From Marinifilaceae bacterium (GTDB lineage Bacteria > Bacteroidota > Bacteroidia > Bacteroidales > Marinifilaceae): a DNA stretch of 64,000 nucleotides. Location: positions 1-64,000 of the forward strand of contig JAFGYE010000098.1 in NCBI GenBank assembly GCA_016936255.1, written 5' to 3'. The position numbers and the translations under genes are program-made. The notes under the pieces were generated by a model. The model saw only the letters and a program-made list of their open reading frames with translations, was not told the origin of the DNA and ran no database searches. Below, piece by piece: positions 41,952 through 60,646 of the stretch. The stretch's first letter is position 1; every line of letters starts with the position of its first letter.

Positions 41952-41984
41952 ATGGAACTCGCCAAACAGTCATTCATGTGTTTG
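41952..41984 (-). promoter_or_regulatory. Possible copy C of the structured leader element
   Basis: Plus-strand ATGGAACT (41952-41959) is followed by a short inverted repeat, CAAACA (41963-41968) and TGTTTG (41979-41984), enclosing TCATTCATG. Order and distance to the start (27 bases) match copies A and B, and the loop region shares TCATG and TGTG words. The stem is different and short, and it overlaps the stop of the upstream gene at 41974, so this copy is uncertain. Confidence 0.3.
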
Positions 41985-43176
41985 TGAGCCTTTTCTCATG
42001 GCTCGTTTCATATTCCGGTATTTTTATGGTTTCAACTAAATAATTCGATAAGGACAAAAACATCCAGGCTTGTGCCCATCTGATGTAAGGAATCTTGTTT
42101 TTTCGGCGTTTCCCTGACTGGAAATAGAAATAACCTGATTGATCCTGAAGATTGTTGATGGTCCATTGTAAAACCCGATCAACCAATTCCTGATTCTCTT
42201 CCAACACATTTAAGCTGCATAGTGTAATGGGTAGTTGAGCCGGACAATGTATATCAATCGGATAAACTGAATTGCTGTAATATTTTGGCGTTCCGTCTTC
42301 GGCAAAAAAATTGGCTAAATAGTAATCCAATCCCAACTGAATTTGCTGATCGAAAGAAGAATCCTTTGTATATCTGCGATAATCGGATAAGGCCTCGAGA
42401 TTAAATCCGGTATGAAAATTATCGATCCACCGATGATAAGCCAAAGTACCGTACGACCAGGATCCATCGGAGTTTTGGTTCTTGATACAATACCTTACCG
42501 ATTGCTTTGCACAATTCAAAACTTCCTTCTCTTGTGTATAATGATAGATTCTCGACAGCATCCGGCTTCCTAAAAGAGAAGCATTAAAAACCTGAGTTTG
42601 ATCCAATGGAGAATAGGAAAAACAGAAATCCCCGTTTCCGTCGTAGGTTCGATTCAAATCTTTCAGGATAAAATCTTTGATTCGTATGGCGGTCTCCAAC
42701 AACTTTTCATCTCCCAATATTTCGTAAGCATCCAGCAATGCGCATCCCACATAGGTAGTTACCACTACCGATGGTGTGCCTTTGGGTTGATAAAAGGCTC
42801 TTGCCTGCCAATCAAAATTGTATCCCCAACAGGGGCCCCACCATCCTTTCGATTGCATTTCCAATAATTTTTCGCTCAGAAAATGAATCCGGGATCTTAC
42901 TTCCTGTGTTCGATCAAATTGATAGAGCTTACAATATCCACTAAGAAATAAACCAAGACCTTTTGGATTGTAAGCCTTCTCAACTCTGGTAAGACCCCGG
43001 AAATTTACTGGACTTTTTTTAAATGCCTGAATCCAAATCAATCGCATTAACCTGCTGTTTTGCGCAAAAGGAATGGACTGAAAAAGTTTGGAATTCAGGC
43101 CATCGTATGGGTCCCAGCCTTTGTATTCCTGACTTTCAATATAGCTTCTAAGTTTCTGGAAACTTGCTTTGTACAT
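41974..43176 (-). CDS. Alpha/alpha-toroid-like polysaccharide-cluster protein of unknown function
   Basis: A 400-residue soluble protein with repeated helical pairs and Trp/Tyr-rich loops (SKGWWGPCWGYNFDWQARAF, NSDGSWSYGTLAYHRWIDNF, QDQSGYFYFQSGKRRKN) typical of (alpha/alpha)6-barrel glycoside hydrolases or epimerases and of prenyltransferase-like toroids. There is no signal peptide or membrane segment. Relatives occur in other polysaccharide clusters and are sometimes labelled delta-aminolevulinate dehydratase, which nothing in this sequence supports. It could be a cytosolic hydrolase, lyase or epimerase acting on the lipid-linked unit, or a binding protein. Confidence 0.55.
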   Translation of the reverse strand: MYKASFQKLRSYIESQEYKGWDPYDGLNSKLFQSIPFAQNSRLMRLIWIQAFKKSPVNFRGLTRVEKAYNPKGLGLFLSGYCKLYQFDRTQEVRSRIHFLSEKLLEMQSKGWWGPCWGYNFDWQARAFYQPKGTPSVVVTTYVGCALLDAYEILGDEKLLETAIRIKDFILKDLNRTYDGNGDFCFSYSPLDQTQVFNASLLGSRMLSRIYHYTQEKEVLNCAKQSVRYCIKNQNSDGSWSYGTLAYHRWIDNFHTGFNLEALSDYRRYTKDSSFDQQIQLGLDYYLANFFAEDGTPKYYSNSVYPIDIHCPAQLPITLCSLNVLEENQELVDRVLQWTINNLQDQSGYFYFQSGKRRKNKIPYIRWAQAWMFLSLSNYLVETIKIPEYETSHEKRLTNT

Positions 43177-43255
43177 ATATTCTGAATTATAGATGTGCTG
43201 AGAAAACTTGTTCCGTGAGAAAAGTCCTCTTAAGGGAATTTTGAGGTGTTTTTAC

Positions 43256-44335
43256 TTACTGCTGTTTTATTTTCGCAACCAATTCGGTCAAAGTCAAGAA
43301 TGTTATTTCACTTTTTCCGGCTTGGTGTATTAAATAAAGTAAGGCATCCGGGTAATAAAAATCTTTTGGATGACCAACCAAAATAAAGGGATGAAACAGT
43401 ATTGCTGAATGTTTCTGAAGCCTGATTGCCGCTTTTAAAAAGTTTCTCATTTTCCCTTTCGAGAACAAACAAAAATCCCAGGTTAAGGCCTCTTCCTGAA
43501 GCAAAAACTGAACCGTCTCCCATTTTGATTTCTTTGCGCTGTTGTTTTTAAATTTCTCCAAGGAATTGGCTTTATTCTGCATTGCAGATTTTATGCGTAC
43601 TGCATCGTATTTTAGGATTCGTCTTCGCTTTTGAGCAAAAATTGGCAGTTCCAAAAATCCACTGCTAATTCCGTTTGAACTCATCAAAGAATTATTGGAT
43701 GCATACCAGTAAGCTTTGGTTTCTGAAATATTTGAATAATCGTATTTCGATAGATTGCCTTCCGCTTTTCCCCCATAATAAACCGAGCTGTCTGCAATAA
43801 AGGAATGCTGCTTAAGAACTTTCAGCAATCGGTCAGATGGATCGATATTGTACCCTCCAGCCCGAAGTATGTTGCACTTGTATTCAGAATTTATCGGTTG
43901 CAGAATGGACTCCAAAGTCTCTTTTCCCTTTCGGATTAGTTCCGGCAATCCCATGCTAATGGTTTCGTCCGGCTGATCGGGCACCTCAGGCAACCTCCAG
44001 TAATCCAAATTCAGCAGCCATTCCCCTTTTTCATATTTTGCATCAATCCATTGCGGATGCAGGTGCAATTGTACATCGTGCCCCAATTGATAAGCTCTCT
44101 GTATTTGCTCTTTCATGGCAGTTGCAGGATTCGACGAATATCCCATTGTAATGCCACTCCCGTAAGCTTCCTTCAGCTTCCAGTATTCTACCACCTCAAA
44201 AAATATAGTCAGTTTAATCTTGTGCTGTTCGCAAATACCCAACATTCTATTGGTTGGCTCAATGATGTGCTTGAAAACATCGCCCCGACCAGAACCAAAA
44301 AGTTCGTAGTCGAGTGTTAGGCAAAGAGAGATCAT
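43256..44335 (-). CDS. Polysaccharide deacetylase-like (NodB-fold) protein
   Basis: A 359-residue protein with a carbohydrate-esterase-4-like fold. SLCLTLDYELFG supplies the N-terminal Asp, and GHDVQLHLHPQWIDA the His pair expected to bind the metal. ILRAGGYNI corresponds to the Arg/Gly block of motif 3. No signal peptide is present, so it probably acts in the cytoplasm on a lipid- or nucleotide-linked sugar. Removal of an N-acetyl group would free an amine for the acylating enzymes encoded nearby; this is inferred. Confidence 0.7.
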   Translation of the reverse strand: MISLCLTLDYELFGSGRGDVFKHIIEPTNRMLGICEQHKIKLTIFFEVVEYWKLKEAYGSGITMGYSSNPATAMKEQIQRAYQLGHDVQLHLHPQWIDAKYEKGEWLLNLDYWRLPEVPDQPDETISMGLPELIRKGKETLESILQPINSEYKCNILRAGGYNIDPSDRLLKVLKQHSFIADSSVYYGGKAEGNLSKYDYSNISETKAYWYASNNSLMSSNGISSGFLELPIFAQKRRRILKYDAVRIKSAMQNKANSLEKFKNNSAKKSKWETVQFLLQEEALTWDFCLFSKGKMRNFLKAAIRLQKHSAILFHPFILVGHPKDFYYPDALLYLIHQAGKSEITFLTLTELVAKIKQQ

Positions 44336-44365
44336 GAGATTTTGATGGTTTAACTGGTTTGGTAT

Positions 44366-44653
44366 TTATTTCAGATGCAGACTTTGTACATTGATACATT
44401 GCTCTTGCATTGCTTCGGGTTGCTTTTGTATTTCTTCAGGTTGCTCTTGCGTTTCTTCCATGTTCCCATCCATTTCTTCTATGTTTCCATGCGTTTCTTC
44501 ATGTTGCTTTTGCATTTCTTCCACGTTCCCATGCATTTCTTCGCGTTGATCAGGCATTTCTTCGACGTTCCCATGCATTTCTTCTACTTTCCCATACATT
44601 TCTTCACGTTGCTCTTGCATTTCTTCGCATTGCTTTTGCGATTTCCCTTGCAT
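44366..44653 (-). CDS. Putative heptad-repeat peptide encoded by a 21-bp minisatellite
   Basis: A 95-residue reading frame made almost wholly of seven-residue repeats of EEM-x4 (EEMQEQR, EEMYGKV, EEMHGNV, EEMPDQR and so on, about eleven units) with a short unique head (MQGKSQKQC) and tail (INVQSLHLK). The regular Met at the third place and charged Glu pairs would suit an amphipathic coiled coil, though Gly-Asn in half the units weakens this. It lies 33 bp after the ATP-grasp stop and 30 bp before the deacetylase start, spaced like an operon gene. I know no family for it; it may also be a non-coding repeat whose period happens to keep a frame open. Confidence 0.4.
   Translation of the reverse strand: MQGKSQKQCEEMQEQREEMYGKVEEMHGNVEEMPDQREEMHGNVEEMQKQHEETHGNIEEMDGNMEETQEQPEEIQKQPEAMQEQCINVQSLHLK
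44399..44629. repeat. 21-bp tandem repeat, 11 copies of two alternating types
   Basis: Eleven 21-bp units share ATTTCTTC. Type 1 units begin TTGCTTTTGC or TTGCTCTTGC (44399, 44420, 44441, 44504, 44609) and type 2 begin GTTCCCATGC or similar (44462, 44483, 44525, 44567, 44588), with a hybrid at 44546. A decayed twelfth unit follows at 44630. The period is a multiple of three, so all frames on both strands stay largely open. Confidence 0.92.
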
Positions 44654-44686
44654 ATCTGATTGAATATTTTCTTTGTTGGTCTTCTT

Positions 44687-45787
44687 TCAGCGTTTCACCT
44701 GTCGGAAAAACGGTTTCAAATCACCGATATCCCACACATCAAAAGTTCTGCTGCTGAAGTTGAACAGGACTGAGAACATGTGCATTATCTTTCCCGGGTT
44801 TTTAGCAATTAAAACCATGTCGCGCAGAACATTCATCCATTGAACCTGTTTGGAATTCTTTTGATTACTAACGCACTCTCCTAAAATATAGGGGATCAAA
44901 TCAGGATATTTCAGTTTCATGATCCGGATAAAACCAAACGGCCGGGGGTTCACCTCCAAAAGATAAGGCTCGCCATTAAAAATTTTAAATTCAACATCTA
45001 AAAAACCGGTAAATAATGTTTTGCCAATTAATTGAATGGATTTTTCTTCTATAATTTCGGCAAATCCGCCACAATATTCTTCCACAACCGAAGAGACTCC
45101 CGAACGATAATGCCGGACTTCATTCACACAAATGCCTGCCACTAAATTTCCTTGATCGAAATAAGCTCCATAGGAGTAATTATTTTGCAAATCTGCTCCC
45201 AAAAACTGCTGCATAACCAGCGATTGTTTTTCGCGTTCGCCAAGAGTTTGATAAAGATTCTTTACCTCTTTTATATTGTGCACCAAACAGGTTTTGAAGG
45301 CTGGTTTTTCATACAAATAGATATCCTGATTCCACTTTACGATTTGCGGAAATGTAAAACGCCTGTAATCGGTATCGTGATTCAATTGACTCAGAAGAAT
45401 TGATTTTGGGTATTTGCAATTAATCTCCTCAGCCAATTGGTAGGTATGCAGTTTGTTTAAAAAAATAGATAAAGCCTCTTTATCCTTAGGTACAACATTA
45501 AACAGAGTGAAAAACCCGGGAAAATTCTTCATCAGAAAAGACAGGTAAAAACCACTCGCTACGATACAATCCTGCATCTGATTTTTCGAGGCTAAATCAG
45601 TCAATTTGCCAATCAAATCTTCTTCTGTATCAACAATTAATTTTATGCCGTAACGGGAATACATGGCAATTTCGTTTTTGCGCCCCAGTACAGTAACCAA
45701 ATATCCTATCCGACTATATTCCCGCAATAAAAATAAAGCTTGTGGTCCCGCGCCAACAATCACAATCTGCTTCTGAATCAGGCTCAT
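44687..45787 (-). CDS. ATP-grasp carboxylate-amine ligase-like protein (1)
   Basis: A 366-residue protein. A Rossmann-like preATP-grasp part starts IVIVGAGPQALFLLREY; central strands include VMQQFLGADLQNNYSYGAYF, and the metal-binding end is GFLDVEFKIFNGEPYLLEVNPRPFGFIRI, with the Glu and Asn-x-Arg that bind Mg-ATP. Such enzymes ligate a carboxylate to an amine, hydroxyl or thiol by acyl-phosphate chemistry. Its ATG overlaps the stop of the CapK gene by four bases (ATGA), indicating coupling. A role in amide decoration of a sugar is inferred from neighbours. Confidence 0.75.
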   Translation of the reverse strand: MSLIQKQIVIVGAGPQALFLLREYSRIGYLVTVLGRKNEIAMYSRYGIKLIVDTEEDLIGKLTDLASKNQMQDCIVASGFYLSFLMKNFPGFFTLFNVVPKDKEALSIFLNKLHTYQLAEEINCKYPKSILLSQLNHDTDYRRFTFPQIVKWNQDIYLYEKPAFKTCLVHNIKEVKNLYQTLGEREKQSLVMQQFLGADLQNNYSYGAYFDQGNLVAGICVNEVRHYRSGVSSVVEEYCGGFAEIIEEKSIQLIGKTLFTGFLDVEFKIFNGEPYLLEVNPRPFGFIRIMKLKYPDLIPYILGECVSNQKNSKQVQWMNVLRDMVLIAKNPGKIMHMFSVLFNFSSRTFDVWDIGDLKPFFRQVKR

Positions 45788-47061
45788 TTTTTTTCAATTT
45801 GAGATACAACTAAATTAAACTTCCCTCTGTGGCTTCTGATCAATCCCTGCGTTTCAATTTTTTCAAACCTGATTCTGCAATCAGCCCCCAATAAAGCTCT
45901 TAAGTTTTGTTCCAGTTTTGTGCAATCTAATTTTGTAAACCCTTTATCAGGGACTAGATTTACGGTTATTTCTCCCACGGTATTTTGAATAATTTGAGCC
46001 GCCAGAAGCTGATTTATTTTCTTAAAAGCCAAATCCAATCGTCCAATTCGCTGACCATCTTTTAAAATCACATAATCATCATCACGACCTTCTATTTTTT
46101 GAACCACACAGGCTCCGTTACTTGTGGGTGCCAATTGAATTATATCATCTACCTTATAACGAATTAAAGGAAATGCCCTGTTGATAAATCCGGTTGTTAT
46201 TAAATGATTGTCGGCAAATTCGGTATGAGAATACAATGGAAATTCATGATAATAAGAATCATTAAACTGCCCAAAAGCAACTGTTTGTTCTGCATTTCCA
46301 TACCAATCGAATATTTTGGTATGGAAAACTTTCTCTACAATTTCTCTTTGGAAATCGTGCAATACCTCCGATGAAGTAAATGCAAGCGGAATGCTTAATT
46401 CCAAATTCGCTTTGTACAATTCTGTGGCCAATATGTGCATTGAGCTTGGATATGCCTTTATTACTTTAGGCTGAAAATCCGTAATCATTTTATGAATCCT
46501 GCCAATTTCATCCGCCCCCAAATGAAAACTGGAGATGTACAAAACATTATTGCTTTTATCGAAATAAGAAACTGTATTCCTATCCAGTACACCTCGAAGG
46601 GAAACAACAGGATCGCCTAAATGATACCCGTGCTTTTGCTGGAAAAAATGTCCGTAAGCATATTCTTTTATTGTAGATGAAAAATCCCGGTATACCTGAA
46701 GAGGTGTTCCTGTTGTACCGCTCGAATAGGCTTTAAAAACAGTAAATTTTGATTTGGTTAAAATATCGGCACTGTTTTTTTTAACAATCGATTTATTGAT
46801 GATTGGTAATTTATTTATATCCGATAATTTTTTAACCGAATCAATAGTTAATCCATGAGACTGATACAGATTTTTATAGAATTTTGAATTTTCAAAAGCA
46901 TTTTTAAATTGTTTTACAAACTCCTGCTCTTTTAATTCCAATAACTCCTGCTTCGAACAATTACTCAAATCAATAATTTTTCTGAGTTCTCTTTCGAAAC
47001 CACTTCCGAACTTAATTTTATAGGCAATCAAATCTTTGATTAATCGATATGTCATATTCAA
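45784..47061 (-). CDS. CapK/PaaK-type adenylate-forming ligase (1)
   Basis: A 425-residue member of the phenylacetate-CoA ligase/CapK branch of the adenylate-forming superfamily. The phosphate-binding loop is AYSSGTTGTPLQVYRD, and PKVIKAYPSSMHILATELYK, LAFTSSEVLHDFQREIVEKV and FDWYGNAEQT are the A4-A5-like blocks, followed by the C-terminal lid region. CapK-type proteins recur in capsule clusters; in related systems they activate an acyl acid as AMP ester. It is a tandem paralogue of the next upstream gene (11-bp gap), clearly similar along its length. Confidence 0.85.
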   Translation of the reverse strand: MNMTYRLIKDLIAYKIKFGSGFERELRKIIDLSNCSKQELLELKEQEFVKQFKNAFENSKFYKNLYQSHGLTIDSVKKLSDINKLPIINKSIVKKNSADILTKSKFTVFKAYSSGTTGTPLQVYRDFSSTIKEYAYGHFFQQKHGYHLGDPVVSLRGVLDRNTVSYFDKSNNVLYISSFHLGADEIGRIHKMITDFQPKVIKAYPSSMHILATELYKANLELSIPLAFTSSEVLHDFQREIVEKVFHTKIFDWYGNAEQTVAFGQFNDSYYHEFPLYSHTEFADNHLITTGFINRAFPLIRYKVDDIIQLAPTSNGACVVQKIEGRDDDYVILKDGQRIGRLDLAFKKINQLLAAQIIQNTVGEITVNLVPDKGFTKLDCTKLEQNLRALLGADCRIRFEKIETQGLIRSHRGKFNLVVSQIEKK

Positions 47062-47071
47062 AGTTTATAGT

Positions 47072-48391: not shown

Positions 48392-49430
48392 GGTAAATTG
48401 AAAATAGAGTTTTTAAAACGCTTTGAGGATAGAAGTCAACACTCCCTTTTGCCGACCTTTCAGAGTAAATCTGTATCAAATTATGGTTGTTTAGTAGTTT
48501 TAAAATGGCTTTTTTTATCGCTTCCTCATTTCCGGCATCAACTAAAATGCCATTCTTGTATTTGTAAATTAAATCAGGGATTCCTCCCGCATTACTTGAT
48601 ATTATTGGAAGTGAATAACTCATTGCTTCCAAAATAGATAAAGGCAATCCTTCCTTGTATGAAGGCAAAATAAAAATGTGCGATGAGCGCATCAACTGAT
48701 CTTTTTTCTTTGTATCTGCCCAACCTTCAAATTGTACCAAACTCTCCAATCTCCATCTCGAAATATACCTTTTTAGCCGGGACACTTCTCCATTACCGGC
48801 AATCTTCAAAATTAATTTCCCCTCAAAATCAGTTCTGTTTTTCGAAATGGTTTTTAATAAATCAAATATTCCCTTATTGTCACCAATTAAGCCCAAAAAG
48901 AGAAACTGAAGTTTGCCATTCAACACTATTTTATTGGGTTCAGCCGGAGGAATAATCATGTTGTTTAAAATCACCACACGCTTCGGATGAAAAGCGCTGG
49001 AAAAGAAATGCTTCCACTTTTCAGTCAGGCAAAAAACAACATCGGCAGACTGAATCACATAACGAATTCTCTTTTGTATAAATACCGGTGATTCCAAATA
49101 AAAATCGCGAAACCCACCTCCGTGGATATGATAGATCAGTTTCTTGTTAAACAGCCTGTGAACTATCGAGAACAGAATGTATTTGCGGTAAAAACTGCCT
49201 TTCGATGCTCCGTGAATATGAATAATTTTAATCTCTGAATCTTTTAAAAGGCGAAATATCAATTCAATTACACAAACAGGGAACCAAATACTATTCAACA
49301 CTTTTGAGTTGAATCGATGCGTAACAATCAGTTTAAATGGTTTGATGTGTTTCGAATAATTATTTACACACAAGCCGATTCCACCTTTACTTTTTGTATT
49401 CCCAGGAGCAATAAATAATACTTCTTTCAT
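48348..49430 (-). CDS. GT4-type glycosyltransferase
   Basis: A 360-residue GT-B enzyme. The acceptor domain starts MKEVLFIAPGNTKSKGGIGL and contains IHIHGASKGSFYRK; the donor domain has QFLFLGLIGDNKGIFDLLKT and the retaining E-x7-E motif in LPSYKEGLPLSILEAMSYSL with PIISSNAGGIPDLI. It adds a sugar from a nucleotide donor to the growing lipid-linked unit on the cytosolic face. Its last 44 bases overlap the start of the CapK gene. Confidence 0.92.
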   Translation of the reverse strand: MKEVLFIAPGNTKSKGGIGLCVNNYSKHIKPFKLIVTHRFNSKVLNSIWFPVCVIELIFRLLKDSEIKIIHIHGASKGSFYRKYILFSIVHRLFNKKLIYHIHGGGFRDFYLESPVFIQKRIRYVIQSADVVFCLTEKWKHFFSSAFHPKRVVILNNMIIPPAEPNKIVLNGKLQFLFLGLIGDNKGIFDLLKTISKNRTDFEGKLILKIAGNGEVSRLKRYISRWRLESLVQFEGWADTKKKDQLMRSSHIFILPSYKEGLPLSILEAMSYSLPIISSNAGGIPDLIYKYKNGILVDAGNEEAIKKAILKLLNNHNLIQIYSERSAKGSVDFYPQSVLKTLFSIYHELQSSKGLLIEQN

Positions 49431-49475: not shown

Positions 49476-50411
49476 TCAAGAATACTGATCTATGATTTGA
49501 ACGCTGACTTTCCTGTTTTCTGATTTTAATTTCAACTGCAAAGGTTGAATGTACTGATGCCACAAACCCAACATGCGTGCAATGTTCTCGTATTTCCCTC
49601 CTTTTGTATTGATAGAAACTCTGGGGAGTTCATACATTCCATTATTTTCCCGATTAAGATTCGGATTCGTAGTAAAAGCCATTTTATAGCCATTCTTTTT
49701 TAAGAATTCAAAATCCCTTTCATCGTAATCGCCGTTTGGATATGCGAACGAATTAATTTCCGTATTCAACCAGCTCTCTAAAATCTTTTTCGATTCGGAA
49801 TACTCAAATGCCAGTTCCTCATTGGTACATTGAATACCAATTGGATGGTGATAGCTATGCGATCCGATGGTAACCAGCGGATGCCTGTGCAAGTATTCCA
49901 GTTCTTTCAGATTTACAGCCGATCTCTTTAATACACGTTCTGCGACAGCATTTCGAACATATTCCATCCGCTGACTGTTTCTCATCTTTTTTAAATCCTC
50001 TGCCCCCCTTATTTCGGGATACTTACTTTTTAGATAGGGAACGTATTCCCACCAATAATTCCCCGAGACAACCGGTTTAACAGGTGTGAAAATTGAAATT
50101 GGAATTTGATATTTCTCAATTATTGGAATCAATTTTAAGTTCCCTTTCCATGCATCATCAAACGAAACAAAGGCTTTCCTTTCCTTCAACTCCTCTCTGC
50201 CAAGTGCAAGATCATACAATTCCTTCCCGCTGATAAAATGGAAATTATTCGCTCTTAAAAACAGAATTATTCCTTGAAATAAAAAAGGAGACGGGTTGTG
50301 AAAATAGATAGACAAAACATGTTTGTCAAACTTTTGCAATGCAACTCCTTTGTAGAAAAAAATCACCACAAAACCCAAAAAATCGCCTATCACTTTTTTA
50401 ATCCTCTGCAT
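49476..50411 (-). CDS. Polysaccharide deacetylase (CE4-like)
   Basis: A 311-residue protein with an N-terminal hydrophobic segment (VIGDFLGFVVIFFYKGVAL) that may anchor it to the inner membrane. The catalytic motifs are intact: SFDDAWKGN (Asp-Asp), TIGSHSYHHPIG (His-x3-His) and FAYPNGDYD. It is expected to remove N- or O-acetyl groups from the polymer or a precursor. It overlaps the upstream acyltransferase gene by 14 bp. Confidence 0.85.
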   Translation of the reverse strand: MQRIKKVIGDFLGFVVIFFYKGVALQKFDKHVLSIYFHNPSPFLFQGIILFLRANNFHFISGKELYDLALGREELKERKAFVSFDDAWKGNLKLIPIIEKYQIPISIFTPVKPVVSGNYWWEYVPYLKSKYPEIRGAEDLKKMRNSQRMEYVRNAVAERVLKRSAVNLKELEYLHRHPLVTIGSHSYHHPIGIQCTNEELAFEYSESKKILESWLNTEINSFAYPNGDYDERDFEFLKKNGYKMAFTTNPNLNRENNGMYELPRVSINTKGGKYENIARMLGLWHQYIQPLQLKLKSENRKVSVQIIDQYS

Positions 50412-52702: not shown

Positions 52703-52705
52703 ATT

Positions 52706-53965
52706 TTAAATTGTAGTTGAGTGTGTCTTCAAATCTGCTGATGAAAGCCGGTGTTTTATTTCAATGTAACGGTTAATTCTATCTTCGATCAATGAAATTC
52801 CGATGAACAGAGAAAGAAACAGATCCAATAAAAAGTAATTTGCCTGCTGCGTTACCAAACAGGAAATAAACATAAAAAAGATTGCTACAGTCAATTGGTT
52901 GTGACTACTGTTCGATTTGGAAATTTCGCTGAAAATTGAATAAAGGAACACCAGGTAAAGTAGAAAACCGAGTATTCCATTGTCAACTATAGTCTGAACA
53001 AAACCATTGTGTGCAAAAAGAGGCATTCCATCCTTTTTCTCATATCTGTTTTGCGATTCCTGCATTCCCATTCCAACTAAATAGGTCACAAAATTACTTT
53101 CGTACAAATTTTCCAAATATACCTGAGCAATTTGCAACCGCCCGGAACCTACAGTTTCATAAGCCGATTTATCTTCCTGCCCTGCCCTGTCGTCCATCAC
53201 TCTGCGGCGAAAGCCTTCGTTGGTTTGATACAAAACAATAAGACCCGCAAATAAAAGAACACTAAGAGCCAATATTTTACCCGCTTCTTTAAAAGTAATT
53301 TTTCGTACAAAAAGAATGCTGACTCCTACCACAAACATGAGCCAACCGGTTCGCGTATAGGTCTTAAAAAGAAAAAATAATCCTAAAAGCAAAAGTGGTC
53401 CCAACACAAAATTCATGAGCATATCACCTCTTTTATTAACAATAAACTCAAGTATAACAATACAGGCTATCGATAATAAAGCCGATGTATAATGCGGGGC
53501 TCCCAATATTCCAACCAAACCATCCAAAGAGGTATCCTCCATCCAAAGCATGGTTTTACTGACCGGAGCCGAAAAAACACCCAAATAGTAAGGAATATTT
53601 GAAATAATTAGAAAGCCAGCCAGATAAACCGGCAGCATCCGTAATTTCTTCAGGCTTTCAACACTGTTGATATTCAAATAAATCCAATGAGCCACCAATG
53701 GTATGGTTAAGTATTTAGAGAAATTGATGATGGAATCAACCGGATAATCGAAAAAAGAAGTATTCACCAGATTCTTAATTGCAAAAAGATAACCGAGAAT
53801 CAAAAAATTGAAATGGACTTTCTGTCCCAAAACGCCAACAAATAGAAAAATAAGTAATGGTAACTTCCAGATGTAAGCCATTTCCTGGCCGCCAATTGTA
53901 TAACTCTTTAAGAAAAGAGCCACAAAAAAAGCCAGCATCCAAAATGCTGTTTCAACGTACTTCAT
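52706..53965 (-). CDS. Wzy/WaaL-type O-antigen polymerase or ligase
   Basis: A 419-residue protein with about 10-12 membrane helices (MLAFFVALFLKSYTIGG, LPLLIFLFVGVLGQKVHFNF, IILEFIVNKRGDMLMNFVLG). The large periplasmic loop near the centre (SGRLQIAQVYLENLYESN, PLFAHNGFVQTIVDNGILGF) carries the H-N-x6-D-N-G pattern of the Wzy_C/O-antigen-ligase domain. In a Wzx/Wzy system it joins repeat units on the periplasmic face. It could instead be a ligase, but no other polymerase candidate is visible here. Confidence 0.82.
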   Translation of the reverse strand: MKYVETAFWMLAFFVALFLKSYTIGGQEMAYIWKLPLLIFLFVGVLGQKVHFNFLILGYLFAIKNLVNTSFFDYPVDSIINFSKYLTIPLVAHWIYLNINSVESLKKLRMLPVYLAGFLIISNIPYYLGVFSAPVSKTMLWMEDTSLDGLVGILGAPHYTSALLSIACIVILEFIVNKRGDMLMNFVLGPLLLLGLFFLFKTYTRTGWLMFVVGVSILFVRKITFKEAGKILALSVLLFAGLIVLYQTNEGFRRRVMDDRAGQEDKSAYETVGSGRLQIAQVYLENLYESNFVTYLVGMGMQESQNRYEKKDGMPLFAHNGFVQTIVDNGILGFLLYLVFLYSIFSEISKSNSSHNQLTVAIFFMFISCLVTQQANYFLLDLFLSLFIGISLIEDRINRYIEIKHRLSSADLKTHSTTI

Positions 53966-54194: not shown

Positions 54195-55421
54195 CTATTC
54201 CAGTTCAACTGCAATTAGCTCTCCTATTTTATTCATTATCTGATCCCTTGTATCTGGATTTGGAAATTCAAGTAAGCCTATTCCTAGCGCACAATTTGAG
54301 CCGCAAAAGCGAAAAACATCTTCCCCTTCTTCAACCATCATTTTAATTTCCAACACATAATCCTTTATCGAATCATGCAATTTTACAGATCGGAATTTTC
54401 CATCCTTACTGGAATGAATCACATAAATGGTGTAGTACTTATCCATCTCCTTTTGGCTTTGAATCTCTGGTTCTGCACCCATGCTGGCATCCACACTCAT
54501 TTTAACCATGTCAACATTACGTGCACATTTTATAATTTCCGAAATCCAATTCCCTCCATTATAAGCACCAATCTCCATCAAATAAACCTGGTCGTTTCCA
54601 TCAATAATTACCTCGGTTTTAAACCCTCCTAATTTGATTTTCAGCAAATGAATCAGTCTTTGCAGTTCTAGTTTTATTTTTTCATGTAATTTCTCAGGCA
54701 ATAAAGAAGGATAATTGATACTTGAAGGTGCAAATTGGTTTACCTCGATATCATTCTTTTGATCTCCCGGATAGTATGCTGCAATCTTACCATTGTAAAC
54801 AAAAATATCTCCATCGAGCTGAGGGTATTTTTTCTCAATATACTCCTCAACAATAAAACGCTTACTTCTGGAAAAATTCATCGCATAATCAATTGCGTTT
54901 CCCATTTCCCATAAATCATTCACCATTGAAATGCCTTTACTTCCAGAAGAACCAACTGGTTTAACAAGAACCGGATAAGTAAACTCTGTTGAATAATTTG
55001 AAAAATCTTCCAGCGTATTATAACCACCGTATTTTGGTGTCTTAAACTGATTCATTAACAAAAAATTACGGTACAAATCTTTTTCAGAAAGAATTTTCAC
55101 CGATTTATACGGGTTTCCGGGAAGCCCCATTTTTTCCGCTACATAAGCCGCCGTAGGTGCTGCAGAATCTGAGGCAAAAGCCAAAACCCCGTCAATCGCC
55201 AATTTTCTTGATACATTCAATACACCCTTTAAATCTGTTGTTCTCAAATTAATATATTCATCAGCATATTGATGCCCTGGATTCTCAGGTGTATGGTCAC
55301 AAGTAATCACATAATAACCAGCCATTTTTGCATACAAAATACCTGGAATCTGAAAAGATGTACCTCCAAGTATTAGCAATTTCTTCCCTTGCAAACACAT
55401 ATCACCCTTATTTTTAACCAT
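54195..55421 (-). CDS. ATP-grasp carboxylate ligase-like protein (2)
   Basis: A 408-residue CarB/PurK-type ATP-grasp. The pre-ATP-grasp part is KKLLILGGTSFQIPGILYAK, TCDHTPENPGHQYADEYI; ATP-binding strands are VLVKPVGSSGSKGISMV and FIVEEYIEKKYPQLDGDIFV; the metal site is YLMEIGAYNGGNWISEI. In its paralogue at 58225-59472 this last block is EIGPRNGGNLV; here the conserved Arg is Tyr, so catalysis may be altered. The start may be at 55400, closer to the paralogue's start. The 229-bp space before the next gene (53966-54194) shows nothing I can assign. Confidence 0.75.
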   Translation of the reverse strand: MVKNKGDMCLQGKKLLILGGTSFQIPGILYAKMAGYYVITCDHTPENPGHQYADEYINLRTTDLKGVLNVSRKLAIDGVLAFASDSAAPTAAYVAEKMGLPGNPYKSVKILSEKDLYRNFLLMNQFKTPKYGGYNTLEDFSNYSTEFTYPVLVKPVGSSGSKGISMVNDLWEMGNAIDYAMNFSRSKRFIVEEYIEKKYPQLDGDIFVYNGKIAAYYPGDQKNDIEVNQFAPSSINYPSLLPEKLHEKIKLELQRLIHLLKIKLGGFKTEVIIDGNDQVYLMEIGAYNGGNWISEIIKCARNVDMVKMSVDASMGAEPEIQSQKEMDKYYTIYVIHSSKDGKFRSVKLHDSIKDYVLEIKMMVEEGEDVFRFCGSNCALGIGLLEFPNPDTRDQIMNKIGELIAVELE

Positions 55422-55487
55422 ATCGAATCAAAACACTTACCAGTTACAGCAAAGCTAATCTAGACTTCCATTTCACAATTTTAAAGA

Positions 55488-56186
55488 CTATATCAATACA
55501 TAACTCTTCAAAAACCGCAATACAGTCTCCTTATCATTAAACATTAAAATATCTATTATCGATAGATTGGGGATGAACTTTTTTCCTGTCTGAGCGTATT
55601 CAACTTTTCCAGTTTTAATAAAGTACAAATCAATTCCTTTGTTATTAAAATATTCCTTTTGATATAATTCCCGCCCCCCAATAACATTCACATAAGCCTT
55701 GTAACCAAACTGTCTTGTGATATCAATTAATCTATCTGCCTTTTCTTTATCCGCATTTAAAGGAGAGCTAATTGATGACTTACTCCATTTAATTGTTTTG
55801 CCTAAATAATCATAAACACTTAAAATTGAATCAATTCCCATATCTCCAATATTATTGTACTCCTTCTTACAAACTTTTTTTATCAACTCCATCACCTCCT
55901 TATAAAATGGAGCTTTTGAATAGGCATATTTCATTTGCAGAAAAAATTTCCTTTTGCATTTCTCATCCGGAATGGGTTTCACCTCATTAATTTTCTTGTT
56001 TTGGCTGCCTTTAGCCACAGGTATCGTGAATAAAAAATCTGAATCATTCAATAAAATTCGATTTCTGTTCACCCAGCCTTGCTTTATGTAGTTCACATCA
56101 TCGTAAAAAACAATTTCACTGGCCGCCTGAATTAATTGAAAATATCCAATATAAGGAAATACATAGGGCTGCATTATCGCAAGCAT
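55488..56186 (-). CDS. WbqC-family protein
   Basis: A 232-residue protein. I take the ATG at 56186 because MLAIMQPYVFPYIGYFQLI is the standard WbqC N-terminus; the longer reading frame from 56261 adds 25 unlikely residues. Conserved blocks are FYDDVNYIKQGWVNRNRILL, FTIPVAKGSQNKKINEV, and ELYQKEYFNNKGIDLYFIKT. WbqC proteins are found in O-antigen clusters that modify 4-amino-4,6-dideoxy sugars, and their activity is not firmly known to me. Its position between ATP-grasp, DegT and VioA-like genes supports a role in N-acyl or aminoacyl decoration. Confidence 0.85.
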   Translation of the reverse strand: MLAIMQPYVFPYIGYFQLIQAASEIVFYDDVNYIKQGWVNRNRILLNDSDFLFTIPVAKGSQNKKINEVKPIPDEKCKRKFFLQMKYAYSKAPFYKEVMELIKKVCKKEYNNIGDMGIDSILSVYDYLGKTIKWSKSSISSPLNADKEKADRLIDITRQFGYKAYVNVIGGRELYQKEYFNNKGIDLYFIKTGKVEYAQTGKKFIPNLSIIDILMFNDKETVLRFLKSYVLI

Positions 56187-56283
56187 ATCCGCCCCAATTT
56201 GCCCTATATTCTTTGGACTTTTCTTGTCAGTTGAAATGTATGTTACTGATTGGCAATCCATGTGAAAAATTTATTATTTATGC

Positions 56284-57246
56284 CTAAGCAATAATCTTAA
56301 GTTTTTTCCTTGATGTATACAAAAAACAAAAAATAGGATCGAACATTTTGTATTTTGAAAGTATTCGATATAAATATTCATTCCTTTTGGCTTTTTCTTT
56401 AAAATAGGTACTGCACTCCTCCCTTAAATCCTCTTTCTTTAAGAAAATAGCATATTTCAAAAGTTCTCTATGATAAATATTTGATATAAAAGGCAGTAAA
56501 TGCCTGCGGTTGAATTTCTCGATGTAATATTTTTTAATAATGTATCTGTCTTTAAAAAATCGATAATCTCCATTCCAATCTAATTTATGGGTCACCGAAT
56601 CGTCGTGAATCCGATAAGTAATGGTATCGTCTTTCATGTAATGAACTTTCGTTGCGGCTGCCGTCTCAATCCATAAAGGATAATCACCCATTTTCCATTT
56701 TTCATCAACAATTTTCTTCCCGATATTGATTCGTTGAAGCAAATCATTTCTCATGCATACCGTTGCTGTTGCTATATGATTTCCTTTTAATACATCATCT
56801 AAAATATTACCAACCGGCAACATTTCCTCACCCCGAAGACTCTTGATTGTTTTTCCATCTTTAACACATGAAAAATTGCTGTGTACCATTCCATAATCTG
56901 GATTCGCTTCTAAAAAATCAACCTGCTTTTGCAATTTATACGGATCGGTCCAAAAATCATCGCCTTCACAAAAAGCAACATATTTCCCTTTGCAGGCAAG
57001 GTCTGTCCGATGATCATTTGCTGCAGCACCCACATTTTTTTCATCCGTGATGATGCGAATTACATCAGGGTATTTAGCCGCATATTCCTGAACAATTTTC
57101 ATCGTTCCGTCTGTACTGCAATCCTCACCAATAATGTATTCAAACGGGAAATTGGTTTTCTGCATCATGATTCCTTCAATGCACTGCGCAATAAATTTTT
57201 CATGATTGTAGGTAATCGTTTTTATACTAACAAAAGGGGTCGTCAT
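56284..57246 (-). CDS. GT2-family glycosyltransferase
   Basis: A 320-residue GT-A enzyme starting VSIKTITYNHEKFIAQCIEG. The nucleotide-binding strand is YIIGEDCSTDGTMKIV and the metal-binding acidic motif is AFCEGDDFWTDPYKLQ, followed by MVHSNFSCVKDG and WKMGDYPLWIE. This subgroup acts on many surface polysaccharides, and donor and linkage cannot be predicted. No membrane helix is present, so it works at the cytosolic face. Confidence 0.92.
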   Translation of the reverse strand: MTTPFVSIKTITYNHEKFIAQCIEGIMMQKTNFPFEYIIGEDCSTDGTMKIVQEYAAKYPDVIRIITDEKNVGAAANDHRTDLACKGKYVAFCEGDDFWTDPYKLQKQVDFLEANPDYGMVHSNFSCVKDGKTIKSLRGEEMLPVGNILDDVLKGNHIATATVCMRNDLLQRINIGKKIVDEKWKMGDYPLWIETAAATKVHYMKDDTITYRIHDDSVTHKLDWNGDYRFFKDRYIIKKYYIEKFNRRHLLPFISNIYHRELLKYAIFLKKEDLREECSTYFKEKAKRNEYLYRILSKYKMFDPIFCFLYTSRKKLKIIA

Positions 57247-57272
57247 ATTTTATGAATTTATTGAATGTTTTT

Positions 57273-58223
57273 TTACAACACAGCCAGTAATACATTACAA
57301 ATCCGCTCCATATCTTCCCTGTTGTATCTCTGATCGACTGGAAGAGGAAGTATGTATTTTGCCAGTTTGTAATCCAAACTATCTGCTGCACATTCCTCCA
57401 GAACATTCGGCCAATAGCTGGCTACAAATATTTTATTTTGAAGTAATTCCTTTCTCACATTTTCATTTTCCACATACAAAGGATAAACCATTGGACCATT
57501 CACAAGCAAATCGGAGAAATCGAATTGATTGACACCGGACAGTTGCTGACGCAGATACCGAAAGTTTTCTTCTCTGATTTGTTTTACTTTGGAATAATCA
57601 ATATGGCTCAAAAGAGACTTGCTTAGTTCCGACATCTGCAAAATTGGCTGCCCCGACAGCTTTAAACTATTCTTCTGAAAATCGGAATAGCCGCTTTCAG
57701 CACCTAATTCCAAACGCTTTAGTAAATGCGACATTCGATCCCACGAATAATCCATTTTTAACTCTTCCTCCAAAACCAAATTGCACGACAAATAAGCGCC
57801 GTCAGGAACACCAAAAAACTTACGGGCCGAATAAAATGTTCCAAAGGCCAATACTTTATCAGAAAAGAACGCCTGCGAATTGTCAACAATCAGGTTCCCA
57901 ATCTGATGACTCAAAGCTTCAAGCACAGCATCTTTAATTCCGAAGTAGTTGATGTAAAGCATCACCTCATCCTTCTTTGGTGAAAAATCTAAAACAGGAT
58001 TCAGATTTTGATCGATTGAATAAAACTCCGCTTCTACATTCAACTTTTTTATGGGTTCCAAAAGCACTTTACAGGAAAACTTTGGCAGGTATATTTTTTT
58101 GAAATTACCCACCCGAAGCAAATATTCGAGACAATTTCTGCCGGTATTCAAGTGCAGCAGATCCGGGTAATATCCCGGTCCGCCAACCACTTCCAACTCA
58201 AAATAGCCGCCAATTGCTTTCAT
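57273..58223 (-). CDS. Short DegT-like PLP-dependent protein
   Basis: A 316-residue protein, about 60-70 residues shorter than normal DegT/DnrJ/EryC1 aminotransferases. LHLNTGRNCLEYLLRV and KIYLPKFSCKVLLEPIKKLN resemble the start of the fold, LIVDNSQAFFSDK the PLP-phosphate strand, and FYSARKFFGVPDGAYLSCN keeps a Lys where the Schiff-base Lys lies. The Asp of VDNSQAF fits the PLP pyridine contact. It may be a specialised transaminase for an amino acid or sugar, or a diverged PLP enzyme. It starts 2 bp after the ATP-grasp stop (58225), so the two probably work together. Confidence 0.65.
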   Translation of the reverse strand: MKAIGGYFELEVVGGPGYYPDLLHLNTGRNCLEYLLRVGNFKKIYLPKFSCKVLLEPIKKLNVEAEFYSIDQNLNPVLDFSPKKDEVMLYINYFGIKDAVLEALSHQIGNLIVDNSQAFFSDKVLAFGTFYSARKFFGVPDGAYLSCNLVLEEELKMDYSWDRMSHLLKRLELGAESGYSDFQKNSLKLSGQPILQMSELSKSLLSHIDYSKVKQIREENFRYLRQQLSGVNQFDFSDLLVNGPMVYPLYVENENVRKELLQNKIFVASYWPNVLEECAADSLDYKLAKYILPLPVDQRYNREDMERICNVLLAVL

Positions 58224-58224
58224 C

Positions 58225-59472
58225 TTAAATAGCTAAGCGATTTGTGTTCACATTATTCACAAAAATTATTCCTTCCGATTCGAGTTCAATCTGAATGTAT
58301 TTTTCGCTGTTGTCTATCTTTTCATACATCTCATCCCTCGATGAAAATTGCAGTAAGAGAACGCCAATGGTTGCATTCGATCCTTGAAAAGATATCACAG
58401 AATCACCAATATTTTTAAAAATATGTTTCTCCAGAATGTTTTCAGCTAAATCCGGAGATATATTAATTTCCTTTAAAATGCCATCGCGGTCGCTGTGCAA
58501 AACATAGTAAGCAAAAAAGCCTTCTTTGTGTATGTGATCAACAGTAATTGTCTTTCCCATGGTCGCTTCAACAGTAGCATTAACCATATTAAATCCACTG
58601 GCATATTGCTCTAACTGAGGAACTAAATTTCCTCCGTTGCGAGGACCGATTTCCATTAAAAAAATTCGGTCATCCTCATCAATTCTCACTTCAATATTAA
58701 AAGCTCCCTGCTTAATCTCAAGAAGATCAAACAAGCGTTGCAGTTCCGATTCTATTCTGCTCAAAATAGCTGCTGAATGGATCGAAGGTAAGGTTGTTGA
58801 GTAGGGAACAAATGGATTTACTTTTTCATCGAAATGATGATCGCCCAAATAACAAAAACATATTTTCCCGCCGCACACAAATGCATCACCATGAATCTGC
58901 GGCCCTTTCTTTACAAGAAACTCCTCCATCACAATCCTTTTGGTTCTGGAAAAACTCATCGCATATTCAAAAGCGCTTACCAGCTCACCCGCTGAATGAA
59001 TTTTCCCCACTCCTTTGCTTCCCGATGAATCAACTGGCTTTACCATAAGCGGAAAGGAAAAATCATCTACTTCAAGCAAGGCATCTGCCAGGCTTTCAAA
59101 TCCTTTTGATTTTGGCAGGTTAAACCCGTTCTTTTGAAGAAAATTCCTAAACAAATCTTTCTCAGCCAAAATTTTCACCGATTGATATGAATTTCCCGGC
59201 AGCTTCATTTTTTCGGATACATATGCTGCAGTAGGTGCCGCAGGATCCGAAGCGTAGGCTACGATTCCATCAATCTTCAATTTTCCAGCCAATTCGAGCA
59301 CTAATTCTTTGTCGGTAGTGCTAATATTGTAATACTCATCAGCATATTGATGCCCCGGATTTTCGGGAACAAAATCACAGGTAATTACATGATAACCCAA
59401 CTTCTTTGCAGCAAGAACAGACGGCACCTGAAAATAAGAACCTCCAAGTAGTAATATCTTCTTCTTGTTCAT
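58225..59472 (-). CDS. ATP-grasp carboxylate ligase-like protein (3)
   Basis: A 415-residue paralogue of the 54195-55421 protein: KKILLLGGSYFQVPSVLAAK, TCDFVPENPGHQYADEYY, LMVKPVDSSGSKGVGKI, and the metal site FLMEIGPRNGGNLVPQL, with the usual Arg and Asn intact. It should form an acyl-phosphate from a carboxylic acid and ATP and pass it to an amine. It sits between the short DegT-like gene (2-bp gap) and the VioA-like aminotransferase (4-bp gap), so it likely shares their substrate. Confidence 0.8.
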   Translation of the reverse strand: MNKKKILLLGGSYFQVPSVLAAKKLGYHVITCDFVPENPGHQYADEYYNISTTDKELVLELAGKLKIDGIVAYASDPAAPTAAYVSEKMKLPGNSYQSVKILAEKDLFRNFLQKNGFNLPKSKGFESLADALLEVDDFSFPLMVKPVDSSGSKGVGKIHSAGELVSAFEYAMSFSRTKRIVMEEFLVKKGPQIHGDAFVCGGKICFCYLGDHHFDEKVNPFVPYSTTLPSIHSAAILSRIESELQRLFDLLEIKQGAFNIEVRIDEDDRIFLMEIGPRNGGNLVPQLEQYASGFNMVNATVEATMGKTITVDHIHKEGFFAYYVLHSDRDGILKEINISPDLAENILEKHIFKNIGDSVISFQGSNATIGVLLLQFSSRDEMYEKIDNSEKYIQIELESEGIIFVNNVNTNRLAI

Positions 59473-59476
59473 AGCT

Positions 59477-60646
59477 TTACTCCATTTTTCTTTTAATCTG
59501 ACTCAATATCTTCACAGCAATTTCTCTGCTCTCAACCCGCGCCATCCCTTTAAGAACAGACACAACAGTATCAACCACTTCATCGGGTAAATCAGGATAC
59601 AAGGGAAGACAAATTACCTGTCGTGATATCTCGTAAGCAATATCCAAACCTTTTGCTGACGGCAATCCCCGGTAAGCTGAGAATTCACTGATTAAAGGGT
59701 AAAAATATCTTCGCCCGTAGATGTTGTGCTTTTTCAGTTCTTCATATACATCATCTCTCGATCTTCCAAACTCCGATTCATCGATAAAAACGGGAAAATA
59801 GGAATAGTTGTACTCAACATCCACCGGATTTTCGAGGTAGCGAACCCCTTCTATATCTTTCAAACCTTCGCGGTATTTTTCTGTAATGTGCTGCCTGCCG
59901 TCAATGGCCGAGTCGAAATATTTCAATTGTAAAATTCCGTAAGCCGCCTGCAATTCGTTCATTTTAGCATTAATACCCGGCGCAACAACTGTTGTTTCAT
60001 CAGCAATCCCAAAATTTTTCAAATAATCAATCCGCCTTTTTGTCTTCAAATCATGACAGATGATGGCTCCCCCTTCGATCGTATTGAAAACTTTTGTTGC
60101 ATGGAAACTGAGTATGGATAAATCGCCGTAATTCAGAACACTGGATCCTTTGTATTTCACTCCAAAAGCATGAGCTGCATCATAAATTACCCGTAAGCCA
60201 TACCGGTCGGCTAAATTCTGAATCTCATCAACATCACATGGATTTCCGTACACGTGAACTGGCAATATAGCCGTGGTCTCCGGTGTAATTGCCGCCTCAA
60301 TTAATTTAGCATCCAAATTGCAGTAATCAGCTTCAATATCAACAAAAACAGGTTTTATTCCATTCCACCATAAAGAGTGGGTTGTGGCAACAAAACTGAA
60401 TGGCGTAGTAATTACTTCCCCTTTTATTTTCAGACATTGCAGCGCCGCCATTAAGGCCAGCGTTCCATTGGAAAATAAGGATACATAGGGAACTCCAAGA
60501 AAAACAGCCAATTGTTTTTCAAATTCCTGATGGTATTTGCCATTATTTGTAAGCCACCTGCTGTCCCAAATATCCTCTAACAAAGGGATAAATTCCTTTA
60601 ATGGCGGCAATTGAGGCCGGGTAACTAATATTTTATGTTTTTCCAT
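59477..60646 (-). CDS. DegT/DnrJ/EryC1 sugar aminotransferase, VioA-like
   Basis: A 389-residue PLP enzyme. The N-terminus VTRPQLPPLKEFIPLLEDIW then SRWLTNNGKYHQEFE resembles VioA-type dTDP-4-amino-4,6-dideoxyglucose transaminases. The PLP sites are VIYDAAHAFGV (Asp) and SFHATKVFNTIEGGAI with the Schiff-base Lys. It would make a 4-amino sugar such as Qui4N or Fuc4N from a 4-keto-6-deoxy nucleotide sugar; the dehydratase that supplies this is not in the window. It overlaps the flippase gene by 22 bp. Confidence 0.88.
   Translation of the reverse strand: MEKHKILVTRPQLPPLKEFIPLLEDIWDSRWLTNNGKYHQEFEKQLAVFLGVPYVSLFSNGTLALMAALQCLKIKGEVITTPFSFVATTHSLWWNGIKPVFVDIEADYCNLDAKLIEAAITPETTAILPVHVYGNPCDVDEIQNLADRYGLRVIYDAAHAFGVKYKGSSVLNYGDLSILSFHATKVFNTIEGGAIICHDLKTKRRIDYLKNFGIADETTVVAPGINAKMNELQAAYGILQLKYFDSAIDGRQHITEKYREGLKDIEGVRYLENPVDVEYNYSYFPVFIDESEFGRSRDDVYEELKKHNIYGRRYFYPLISEFSAYRGLPSAKGLDIAYEISRQVICLPLYPDLPDEVVDTVVSVLKGMARVESREIAVKILSQIKRKME

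What the first reader, a model, noticed from the sequence alone, without database searches (positions are those of the whole stretch)
41974..60646. Polysaccharide cluster rich in acyl-activating and amide-forming enzymes
Within one Wzx/Wzy-type operon there are three ATP-grasp proteins, two CapK adenylate-forming ligases, two CelD/FemAB-like acyltransferases, a WbqC protein, a VioA-like and a short DegT-like PLP enzyme, and two deacetylases. Seen directly: the families, the overlaps and small gaps that couple them. Inference: amino sugars (4-amino-6-deoxyhexose, ManNAcA context) are made, some deacetylated, then N-acylated with unusual acids or amino acids. The WbqC + short DegT + ATP-grasp + VioA-like block (55.5-60.6 kb) and the CapK pair + ATP-grasp block (44.7-48.4 kb) look like two decoration modules.
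Basis: partly seen in the sequence, partly recalled or inferred. Interest (0 to 1): 0.62.

Follow-up and report, generated by a model that had tools for sequence, protein, structure and literature searches.

The report
Sugar-coat genes that attach amino acids
A marine Labilibaculum-like bacterium carries a surface-polysaccharide gene cluster whose extra enzymes most likely hang amino acids on its amino sugars, and comparing it with other genomes gives a testable role to WbqC, a widespread protein family whose function is not established.

Summary
The cluster is real: one minus-strand Wzx/Wzy-type locus of a Labilibaculum-like bacterium.

The VioA-like / ATP-grasp / short-DegT core recurs outside the genus. 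Of the 80 best short-DegT loci, 78 have an amide-former within four genes: CelD/FemAB-like alone 39 (mostly one lineage), ATP-grasp alone 21, WbqC alone 17, two types 1. On the short-DegT tree WbqC and ATP-grasp exchange at least four times (strong branches force two). The CapK/ATP-grasp block was seen only in Labilibaculum.

AlphaFold2 gives WbqC the fold of BshC, the presumed cysteine-to-glucosamine ligase of bacillithiol synthesis (Z 13.9, 221 of 231 residues); sequence profiles do not link them. E. coli O121, which a review cites for N-acetylglycyl-Qui4N, has rfbB-rfbA-VioA-WbqC-GNAT in a row.

Best reading: VioA makes dTDP-Qui4N; ATP-grasp or WbqC joins an amino acid to its 4-amine; the short DegT, a PLP-enzyme family without a database entry found here, supplies or tailors that amino acid (weakest step).

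The parts
59477..60646 (-). VioA/DesI-like sugar 4-aminotransferase, proposed to make dTDP-Qui4N
   Evidence: PF01041 339 bits; DesI model TIGR04427 E 3.3e-89 but under its cut-off; PDB best 2po3 E 8e-69; 53% identical to the E. coli O121 DegT protein
58225..59472 (-). ATP-grasp 1, proposed amide ligase joining an amino acid to the sugar 4-amine
   Evidence: PF13535 over cut-off; L-amino acid ligase 3vot E 3e-16 and 4dim E 2e-25; family member directly upstream of the short DegT in 20 of 80 loci
57273..58223 (-). short DegT-like PLP enzyme (sDegT); first aligned Met 57276-58223
   Evidence: no family match; AlphaFold2 + ArnB fold Z 23.2; K135 and D114 invariant in 10 and 45 homologues
56284..57246 (-). 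family 2 glycosyltransferase inside the module
   Evidence: PF00535
55488..56261 (-). WbqC; homologues start at the Met at 56183, so the true gene is probably 55488-56183
   Evidence: PF08889 220 bits; start; BshC-like predicted fold; Ser22 where 50 of 52 sequences have Asp
54195..55421 (-). ATP-grasp 2, paralogue of ATP-grasp 1
   Evidence: Pfam over cut-off; 47% identity; L020 and L023 have this type directly upstream of sDegT
52706..53965 (-). Wzy-like polymerase
   Evidence: PF04932 54 bits
51629..52702 (-). CelD/FemAB-like acyltransferase b
   Evidence: PF13480 42 bits
50398..51480 (-). CelD/FemAB-like acyltransferase a, overlaps the deacetylase by 14 bases
   Evidence: PF13480 23.5 bits; 56% identical to b
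49476..50411 (-). polysaccharide deacetylase (CE4 type)
   Evidence: PF01522 52 bits
48348..49430 (-). family 4 glycosyltransferase
   Evidence: PF00534 112 bits
47072..48391 (-). CapK/PaaK-like adenylate-forming protein 2
   Evidence: NCBIfam PaaK-like models, under cut-off; 52% identical to copy 1
45784..47061 (-). CapK/PaaK-like adenylate-forming protein 1
   Evidence: NCBIfam PaaK E 1.6e-20, under cut-off; PDB 4r1l E 4e-12
44687..45787 (-). divergent ATP-grasp-like protein
   Evidence: sub-threshold only; shared motif residues
   Evidence: no relevant family match
60625..62085 (-). Wzx flippase
   Evidence: PF13440 318 bits
62097..63332 (-). wecB, UDP-GlcNAc 2-epimerase
   Evidence: TIGR00236 487 bits
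63441..63953 (-). C-terminal part of wecC-type UDP-ManNAc dehydrogenase as listed; the frame opens further upstream
   Evidence: NF008286 E 1.7e-37 over model positions 262-418

Best explanation
The locus makes a repeat-unit surface polysaccharide in which amino sugars are joined to amino acids through amide bonds. Module A (54.2-60.6 kb): dTDP-4-keto-6-deoxyglucose from RmlA/RmlB encoded elsewhere is aminated by the VioA-like protein to dTDP-Qui4N; an ATP-grasp ligase and/or WbqC then couples the carboxylate of an amino acid to the 4-amine, ATP-driven. WbqC would do this as a stripped-down BshC-like enzyme of the class I synthetase/nucleotidyltransferase fold. The short DegT is a PLP enzyme that supplies or tailors that amino acid. 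In many relatives a small GNAT (or a second ATP-grasp) then caps the amino acid's own amine; no such GNAT is in this cluster, where the second ATP-grasp could play that part. Module B (49.5-52.7 kb), a deacetylase plus two CelD/FemAB-like proteins, may do the same to a deacetylated amino sugar, as proposed for VimE/VimA. Shown by calculation: families, recurrence, slot exchange, predicted folds, the O121 gene order. From published work: the O121 glycyl-Qui4N (via a review) and the VimA amino acid specificity. Inferred: every reaction in this organism, the identity of the amino acid and the role of the short DegT.
For: (1) 78 of 80 sDegT loci have an amide-former within four genes: CelD/FemAB-like alone 39, ATP-grasp alone 21, WbqC alone 17, WbqC + CelD/FemAB-like 1. 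(2) WbqC and ATP-grasp occupy the same place directly upstream of sDegT (17 and 20 of 80) behind VioA (15 of 18 and 17 of 20), with no locus holding both (among 44 loci without PhyH 0/18/21/5, Fisher p 3e-8, loci not independent); parsimony on a quick 51-row sDegT tree needs 4 WbqC/ATP-grasp changes. (3) WbqC model: BshC 4wbd Z 13.9, 221 of 231 residues, next match 8.3, the rest of the 50 rows mostly tyrosyl-tRNA synthetases and phosphopantetheine adenylyltransferases. (4) E. coli O121: rfbB-rfbA-DegT-WbqC-GNAT contiguous, WbqC 44% and DegT 53% identical to the window's; review cites O121 for N-acetylglycyl-Qui4N. (5) DegT-type gene in 59 of 69 viral WbqC loci, within two genes in 46 against 18.7 expected for a random gene of the same loci; DegT directly upstream of WbqC in Rhizobium and Bernardetia plasmids and VioA-GT2-WbqC-sDegT in Proteus mirabilis H63. 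(6) rmlA- and rmlB-like genes exist elsewhere in the genome, two of each. (7) VimA determines Ser or Gly on a sugar after VimE (passages).
Against: No activity is shown for any protein here. Profile-profile comparison finds no link between WbqC and BshC (probability 0.2), Foldseek has no match at E 0.001 (4wbd E 0.02, TM 0.45), and BshC itself lacked an in-vitro assay in 2015 (passages of PMC4360819). The window breaks the exclusivity rule by holding two ATP-grasps and WbqC, and its WbqC has Ser22 where 50 of 52 have Asp, so it could be redundant. A second, lower-scoring WbqC occurs in 46 of 48 same-class genomes, so not all WbqC proteins need be sugar enzymes. Only 11 of 30 top-scoring Bacteroidota WbqC loci have a VioA-type gene within two genes upstream. 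Two of 80 sDegT loci (L076, L090) have none of the three amide-formers. The 39 CelD/FemAB-like loci are mainly one Sphingobacteriaceae lineage, a single origin on the tree. The window's CelD/FemAB-like proteins do not match the VimA-type model TIGR03019 at E 0.01.
Confidence: 0.6

Rival explanations
1. WbqC and ATP-grasp attach hydroxy or fatty acyl groups, not amino acids, to Qui4N (as in 3-hydroxybutyryl-Qui4N), with the CapK proteins activating the acids; the short DegT aminates a sugar.
For: Review passages list hydroxybutyryl and other acyl groups on Qui4N. Two CapK/PaaK-like acid-activating proteins are in the cluster. sDegT has a sugar-aminotransferase fold and is followed by a GNAT in 47 of 80 loci, like aminotransferase/acetyltransferase pairs of sugar pathways.
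Against: CapK did not recur with the VioA/ATP-grasp/sDegT core outside Labilibaculum in the loci examined except one CapK-like gene in L051. E. coli O121 has WbqC but no sDegT and no CapK, and is cited for an aminoacyl sugar.
Confidence: 0.2
2. WbqC is a nucleotidyltransferase or another enzyme of the HUP/class I fold that does not form amides; its neighbours only share the pathway.
For: Z 7-8 matches to phosphopantetheine adenylyltransferases and glycerol-3-phosphate cytidylyltransferase; a low-scoring WbqC in nearly every same-class genome.
Against: BshC matches far better (Z 13.9); exchange with ATP-grasp at one slot; in O121 no other gene between rfbA and wzx is left for glycine attachment except the GNAT.
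Confidence: 0.15
3. Decayed or redundant decoration genes: part of the cluster is being lost and the duplicates do little.
For: WbqC is absent from the sister L013, ATP-grasp 2 is a 39-residue trace in L014 and one CelD/FemAB-like copy is missing in L013.
Against: All reading frames in the window are full length, and the VioA, ATP-grasp 1 and sDegT proteins are 93-99% identical in L013 and L014.
Confidence: 0.05

Closest known systems
E. coli O121 O-antigen block rfbB-rfbA-DegT-WbqC-GNAT
   Same: VioA-type aminotransferase and WbqC are homologous (53% and 44% identity); the cited sugar carries N-acetylglycine
   Different: O121 has no short DegT and no ATP-grasp; the window lacks a small GNAT and has rmlA/rmlB elsewhere
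BshC (PF10079), presumed cysteine ligase onto glucosaminyl-malate
   Same: predicted fold over 221 of 231 WbqC residues; proposed chemistry of joining an amino acid to an amino sugar
   Different: no sequence-profile similarity; BshC has extra N-terminal and coiled-coil parts; the window's order lacks BshC (0 of 60 genomes)
VimA/VimE pathway of Porphyromonas gingivalis and Tannerella forsythia
   Same: deacetylase next to GNAT/FemAB-like protein; proposed amino acid transfer to a freed sugar amine (passages)
   Different: the window proteins do not match TIGR03019; two copies; different sugar context (ManNAcA, Qui4N)
ATP-grasp L-amino acid ligases (BL00235, 3vot)
   Same: sequence match E 3e-16 for ATP-grasp 1, LAL_C2 trace
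   Different: known ones make dipeptides (recalled); here an amino sugar is the proposed acceptor
DegT/StrS sugar aminotransferases (ArnB, DesI, PseC)
   Same: sDegT shares the fold, Z 23.2, and keeps an invariant Lys and Asp
   Different: about 50 residues shorter, 12% identity to ArnB, no PF01041 match

Membership tests
WbqC family (PF08889) | profile match over the curated cut-off | tested here: met
   220.5 bits against 21.3
BshC (PF10079) | sequence-profile relationship | tested here: not met
   hhalign probability 0.2; Pfam gave only WbqC for the window protein
BshC (PF10079) | overall fold of the Rossmann-like core | tested here: met
   predicted model only: 4wbd Z 13.9, 221 aligned, rmsd 3.2; Foldseek E 0.02
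BshC (PF10079) | cysteine ligation to glucosaminyl-malate | not testable with these tools
   needs an assay
DegT/StrS aminotransferases, for sDegT | profile match to PF01041 or an NCBIfam member | tested here: not met
   no family at E 0.01
DegT/StrS aminotransferases, for sDegT | fold of the family | tested here: met
   ArnB Z 23.2, 1000 of 1000 chains at Z 8 or more
DegT/StrS aminotransferases, for sDegT | Schiff-base lysine and cofactor aspartate | tested here: inconclusive
   K135 and D114 invariant in 10 and 45 sequences; their roles are read from motif position, not from a residue-level superposition
VimA-type aminoacyl transferase (TIGR03019) | match to the model that VimA matches | tested here: not met
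   no NCBIfam family for 50398 or 51629 at E 0.01; only PF13480
E. coli O121-type glycyl-Qui4N block | VioA-type aminotransferase and WbqC in one operon, with rmlA and rmlB in the genome | tested here: met
E. coli O121-type glycyl-Qui4N block | small GNAT acetyltransferase beside WbqC | tested here: not met
   none of the 20 scanned window genes matches PF13302, and PF00583 appears only under cut-off for 51629

The most novel reading that the evidence does not exclude
Bacterial surface-sugar loci use a portable aminoacyl-sugar cassette: a DegT aminotransferase creates an amine, and one of three unrelated amide-formers (WbqC, ATP-grasp, CelD/FemAB-like) attaches an amino acid that a previously undescribed short PLP family (sDegT) makes or tailors. 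WbqC would be a minimal BshC-fold amino acid:amino sugar ligase, also carried with mini-DegT proteins on viral contigs.
Probability: 0.4. Interest if true: 0.75.

Novelty: new variant of a known kind. Interest (0 to 1): 0.6.

Why it matters
Many O antigens and capsules carry amino acids on their amino sugars, but the joining enzyme is usually unnamed. If WbqC is an amino acid:amino sugar ligase with a BshC-like fold, a family found in 102 of 198 Bacteroidota genomes searched, in Proteobacteria plasmids and on viral contigs gains a function, BshC's poorly understood chemistry gains a small relative to study, and polymer structures become predictable from which of three amide-formers a locus carries.

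Tried and rejected
Rejected: WbqC as part of bacillithiol synthesis in this organism (PF10079 absent from 60 of 60 same-order genomes, the window's included; it is present in 79 of 80 genomes of the phylum draw). Rejected as a recurring unit: CapK pair + ATP-grasp 44687. Led nowhere: PDB sequence searches with WbqC (only an unrelated polymerase chain at E 0.1), sDegT (13), ATP-grasp 44687 (16) and 43256 (119); Rfam and tRNA scans of the window (none); a Proteus WbqC DNA query against E. coli genomes found nothing, although O121 has a WbqC, so that search was too insensitive; the phage collection gave one unannotated record; the serotype structure of Proteus mirabilis H63 could not be found (passages do not name it); no held paper has Qui4N with ATP-grasp or 'glycine transferase' with O antigen. 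Twelve held papers contain the string wbqc (listing); I read passages of one, which calls the domain functionally uncharacterized (PMC5532660). I recall, and could not verify, that Pfam's note on PF08889 mentions a glycine transferase suggestion by Feng et al.; if so the function was guessed before, and what is added here is the fold, the slot exchange and the O121 gene-to-structure match. Also recalled, not from a call: the remaining sugars of the O121 unit and their assignment to tviB, asnB and the serine acetyltransferase-like gene.

Full report
What was checked. The window lies at positions 1-64000 of a 79,359-base contig of a 4.7 Mb genome. The closest loci in the named collection are Labilibaculum euxinus and L. 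manganireducens (95% and 93% identity for sDegT), so the host is Labilibaculum-like. The 23 genes listed from 63953 to 38790 are all on the minus strand and closely spaced. Transcription order: wecC, wecB, wzx, VioA-like, ATP-grasp 1, short DegT (sDegT), GT2, WbqC, ATP-grasp 2, wzy, two CelD/FemAB-like proteins, deacetylase, GT4, two CapK-like proteins, ATP-grasp 3, a repeat-rich ORF, an unidentified protein (43256), a GH88-like protein, WecG-type transferase, an initiating transferase and an export protein.

The short DegT. No Pfam, NCBIfam or PDB sequence match was found. AlphaFold2 from 45 homologues gave pLDDT 94; all 1000 chains compared scored Z 8 or more, the best being ArnB at Z 23.2 with 12% identity. 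A lysine (K135) and an aspartate (D114) are invariant in both alignments. I infer a working PLP enzyme; its substrate is unknown.

Neighbourhoods. In the 80 best loci the gene directly upstream of sDegT is PhyH in 36, ATP-grasp in 20, WbqC in 17 and something else in 7; directly downstream a GNAT stands in 47 and a second ATP-grasp in 8. VioA lies within three genes upstream in 34: 15 of 18 loci with WbqC there, 17 of 20 with ATP-grasp, 0 of 36 with PhyH. All 36 PhyH loci hold a CelD/FemAB-like gene. Within four genes, 77 loci have exactly one type of amide-former, one has two (L088) and two have none (L076, L090). No locus has both WbqC and a strong ATP-grasp hit. Relatedness inflates such counts, so I built a tree: on 51 sDegT proteins (quick method, 12 of 48 inner branches starred, one long row) WbqC and ATP-grasp need four changes, of which starred branches force two; the CelD/FemAB-like state has one origin. 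The window itself breaks the rule with ATP-grasp 1, WbqC and ATP-grasp 2. In L. euxinus the stretch between GT2 and ATP-grasp 2 aligns at both sides of a gap of about 820 bases that contains WbqC; in L. manganireducens ATP-grasp 2 is reduced to a 39-residue trace.

WbqC. PF08889 has no PDB relative by sequence. AlphaFold2 from 52 sequences gave pLDDT 93.5. VIA-align ranked BshC (4wbd) first at Z 13.9, rmsd 3.2, 221 of 231 residues; the next were a tyrosyl-tRNA synthetase (8.3) and a phosphopantetheine adenylyltransferase (8.1). Foldseek also ranked 4wbd first, but with E 0.02, and profile comparison with 15 BshC sequences found nothing, as did the sDegT comparison run alongside it. The shared fold is therefore a structural claim only. 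A review I read in passages calls BshC a putative cysteine ligase of bacillithiol synthesis whose activity had not been shown in vitro (PMC4360819, 2015).

The anchor outside Bacteroidota. The E. coli O121 O-antigen cluster reads tviB, epimerase, rfbB, rfbA, DegT, WbqC, GNAT, wzx, GT, serine acetyltransferase-like, wzy, asnB, GT, GT. A review says Qui4N occurs with N-acetylglycyl and cites for it the O121 structure paper (passages and reference list of PMC3210612; the original paper I did not see). DegT accounts for Qui4N and GNAT for the acetyl, which leaves WbqC as the best candidate for adding glycine. The same adjacency appears in Rhizobium leguminosarum and Bernardetia plasmids (DegT-WbqC) and, with sDegT, in Proteus mirabilis H63. 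In viral contigs 59 of 69 WbqC loci hold a full or mini DegT, 46 of them within two genes against 18.7 expected for a random gene of the same loci.

Against it. In 30 top-scoring Bacteroidota WbqC loci, the window's included, only 11 have a VioA-type gene within two genes upstream, and a second lower-scoring WbqC is found in most same-class genomes (46 of 48 have at least one match), including one on contig 13 of this genome. WbqC proteins may therefore serve several pathways. The window's WbqC also departs at one conserved position.

The second set. CelD/FemAB-like proteins beside a deacetylase recall VimA and VimE, where exchanging VimA changed serine to glycine on the linking sugar (abstract and passages of PMC7468200). 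The window proteins share only the Pfam family PF13480, not the VimA-type model. The CapK pair and ATP-grasp 3 are conserved in three Labilibaculum loci but not beyond: 4 of 197 other same-order genomes have distant ATP-grasp 3 relatives and none shows CapK close by, within the 1.5 kb held.

Supply. Two rmlB-like and two rmlA-like genes lie on other contigs of the genome, so dTDP-4-keto-6-deoxyglucose can be made.

Conclusion. The evidence favours an aminoacyl-sugar polysaccharide locus with exchangeable amide-formers. The general claim is likely (0.6), the WbqC role somewhat more likely than any rival, the sDegT role open.

Noticed in passing
G000:C13:5644-6225 and 46 of 48 same-class genomes: A second, lower-scoring WbqC of about 205-230 residues occurs in nearly every same-class genome, one here outside the window; its role is unknown.
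   Followed up: no
44399-44645: A 21-base degenerate tandem repeat (11.7 copies) makes up a 95-residue repetitive ORF between ATP-grasp 3 and 43256; in the relative L020 that gap is about 30 bases.
   Followed up: partly
viral loci L093-L161, for example L105:5351-5998: WbqC on viral contigs sits beside a mini-DegT of about 213 residues that keeps the SF...K...GGAI stretch (46 of 69 loci), followed by a GH130/GH43-like protein and a GNAT-methyltransferase fusion.
   Followed up: partly
L017-L087, Sphingobacteriaceae loci: A conserved locus PhyH-sDegT-GNAT with CelD/FemAB-like, asparagine synthase, pectate-lyase-like and CapD genes recurs in Pedobacter and Mucilaginibacter.
   Followed up: partly
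L021, L032, L047, L059, L074, L075, L083: In seven loci sDegT lies between two different ATP-grasp proteins, as if the second replaced the GNAT.
   Followed up: partly
L222 (NZ_OL790811.1): A 4.08 Mb Proteus mirabilis record is filed as a plasmid and has only 45 annotated features; it looks like a chromosome.
   Followed up: no
41974-43176: A GH88/GH127-like protein inside the biosynthetic cluster, unusual company for biosynthesis genes.
   Followed up: no
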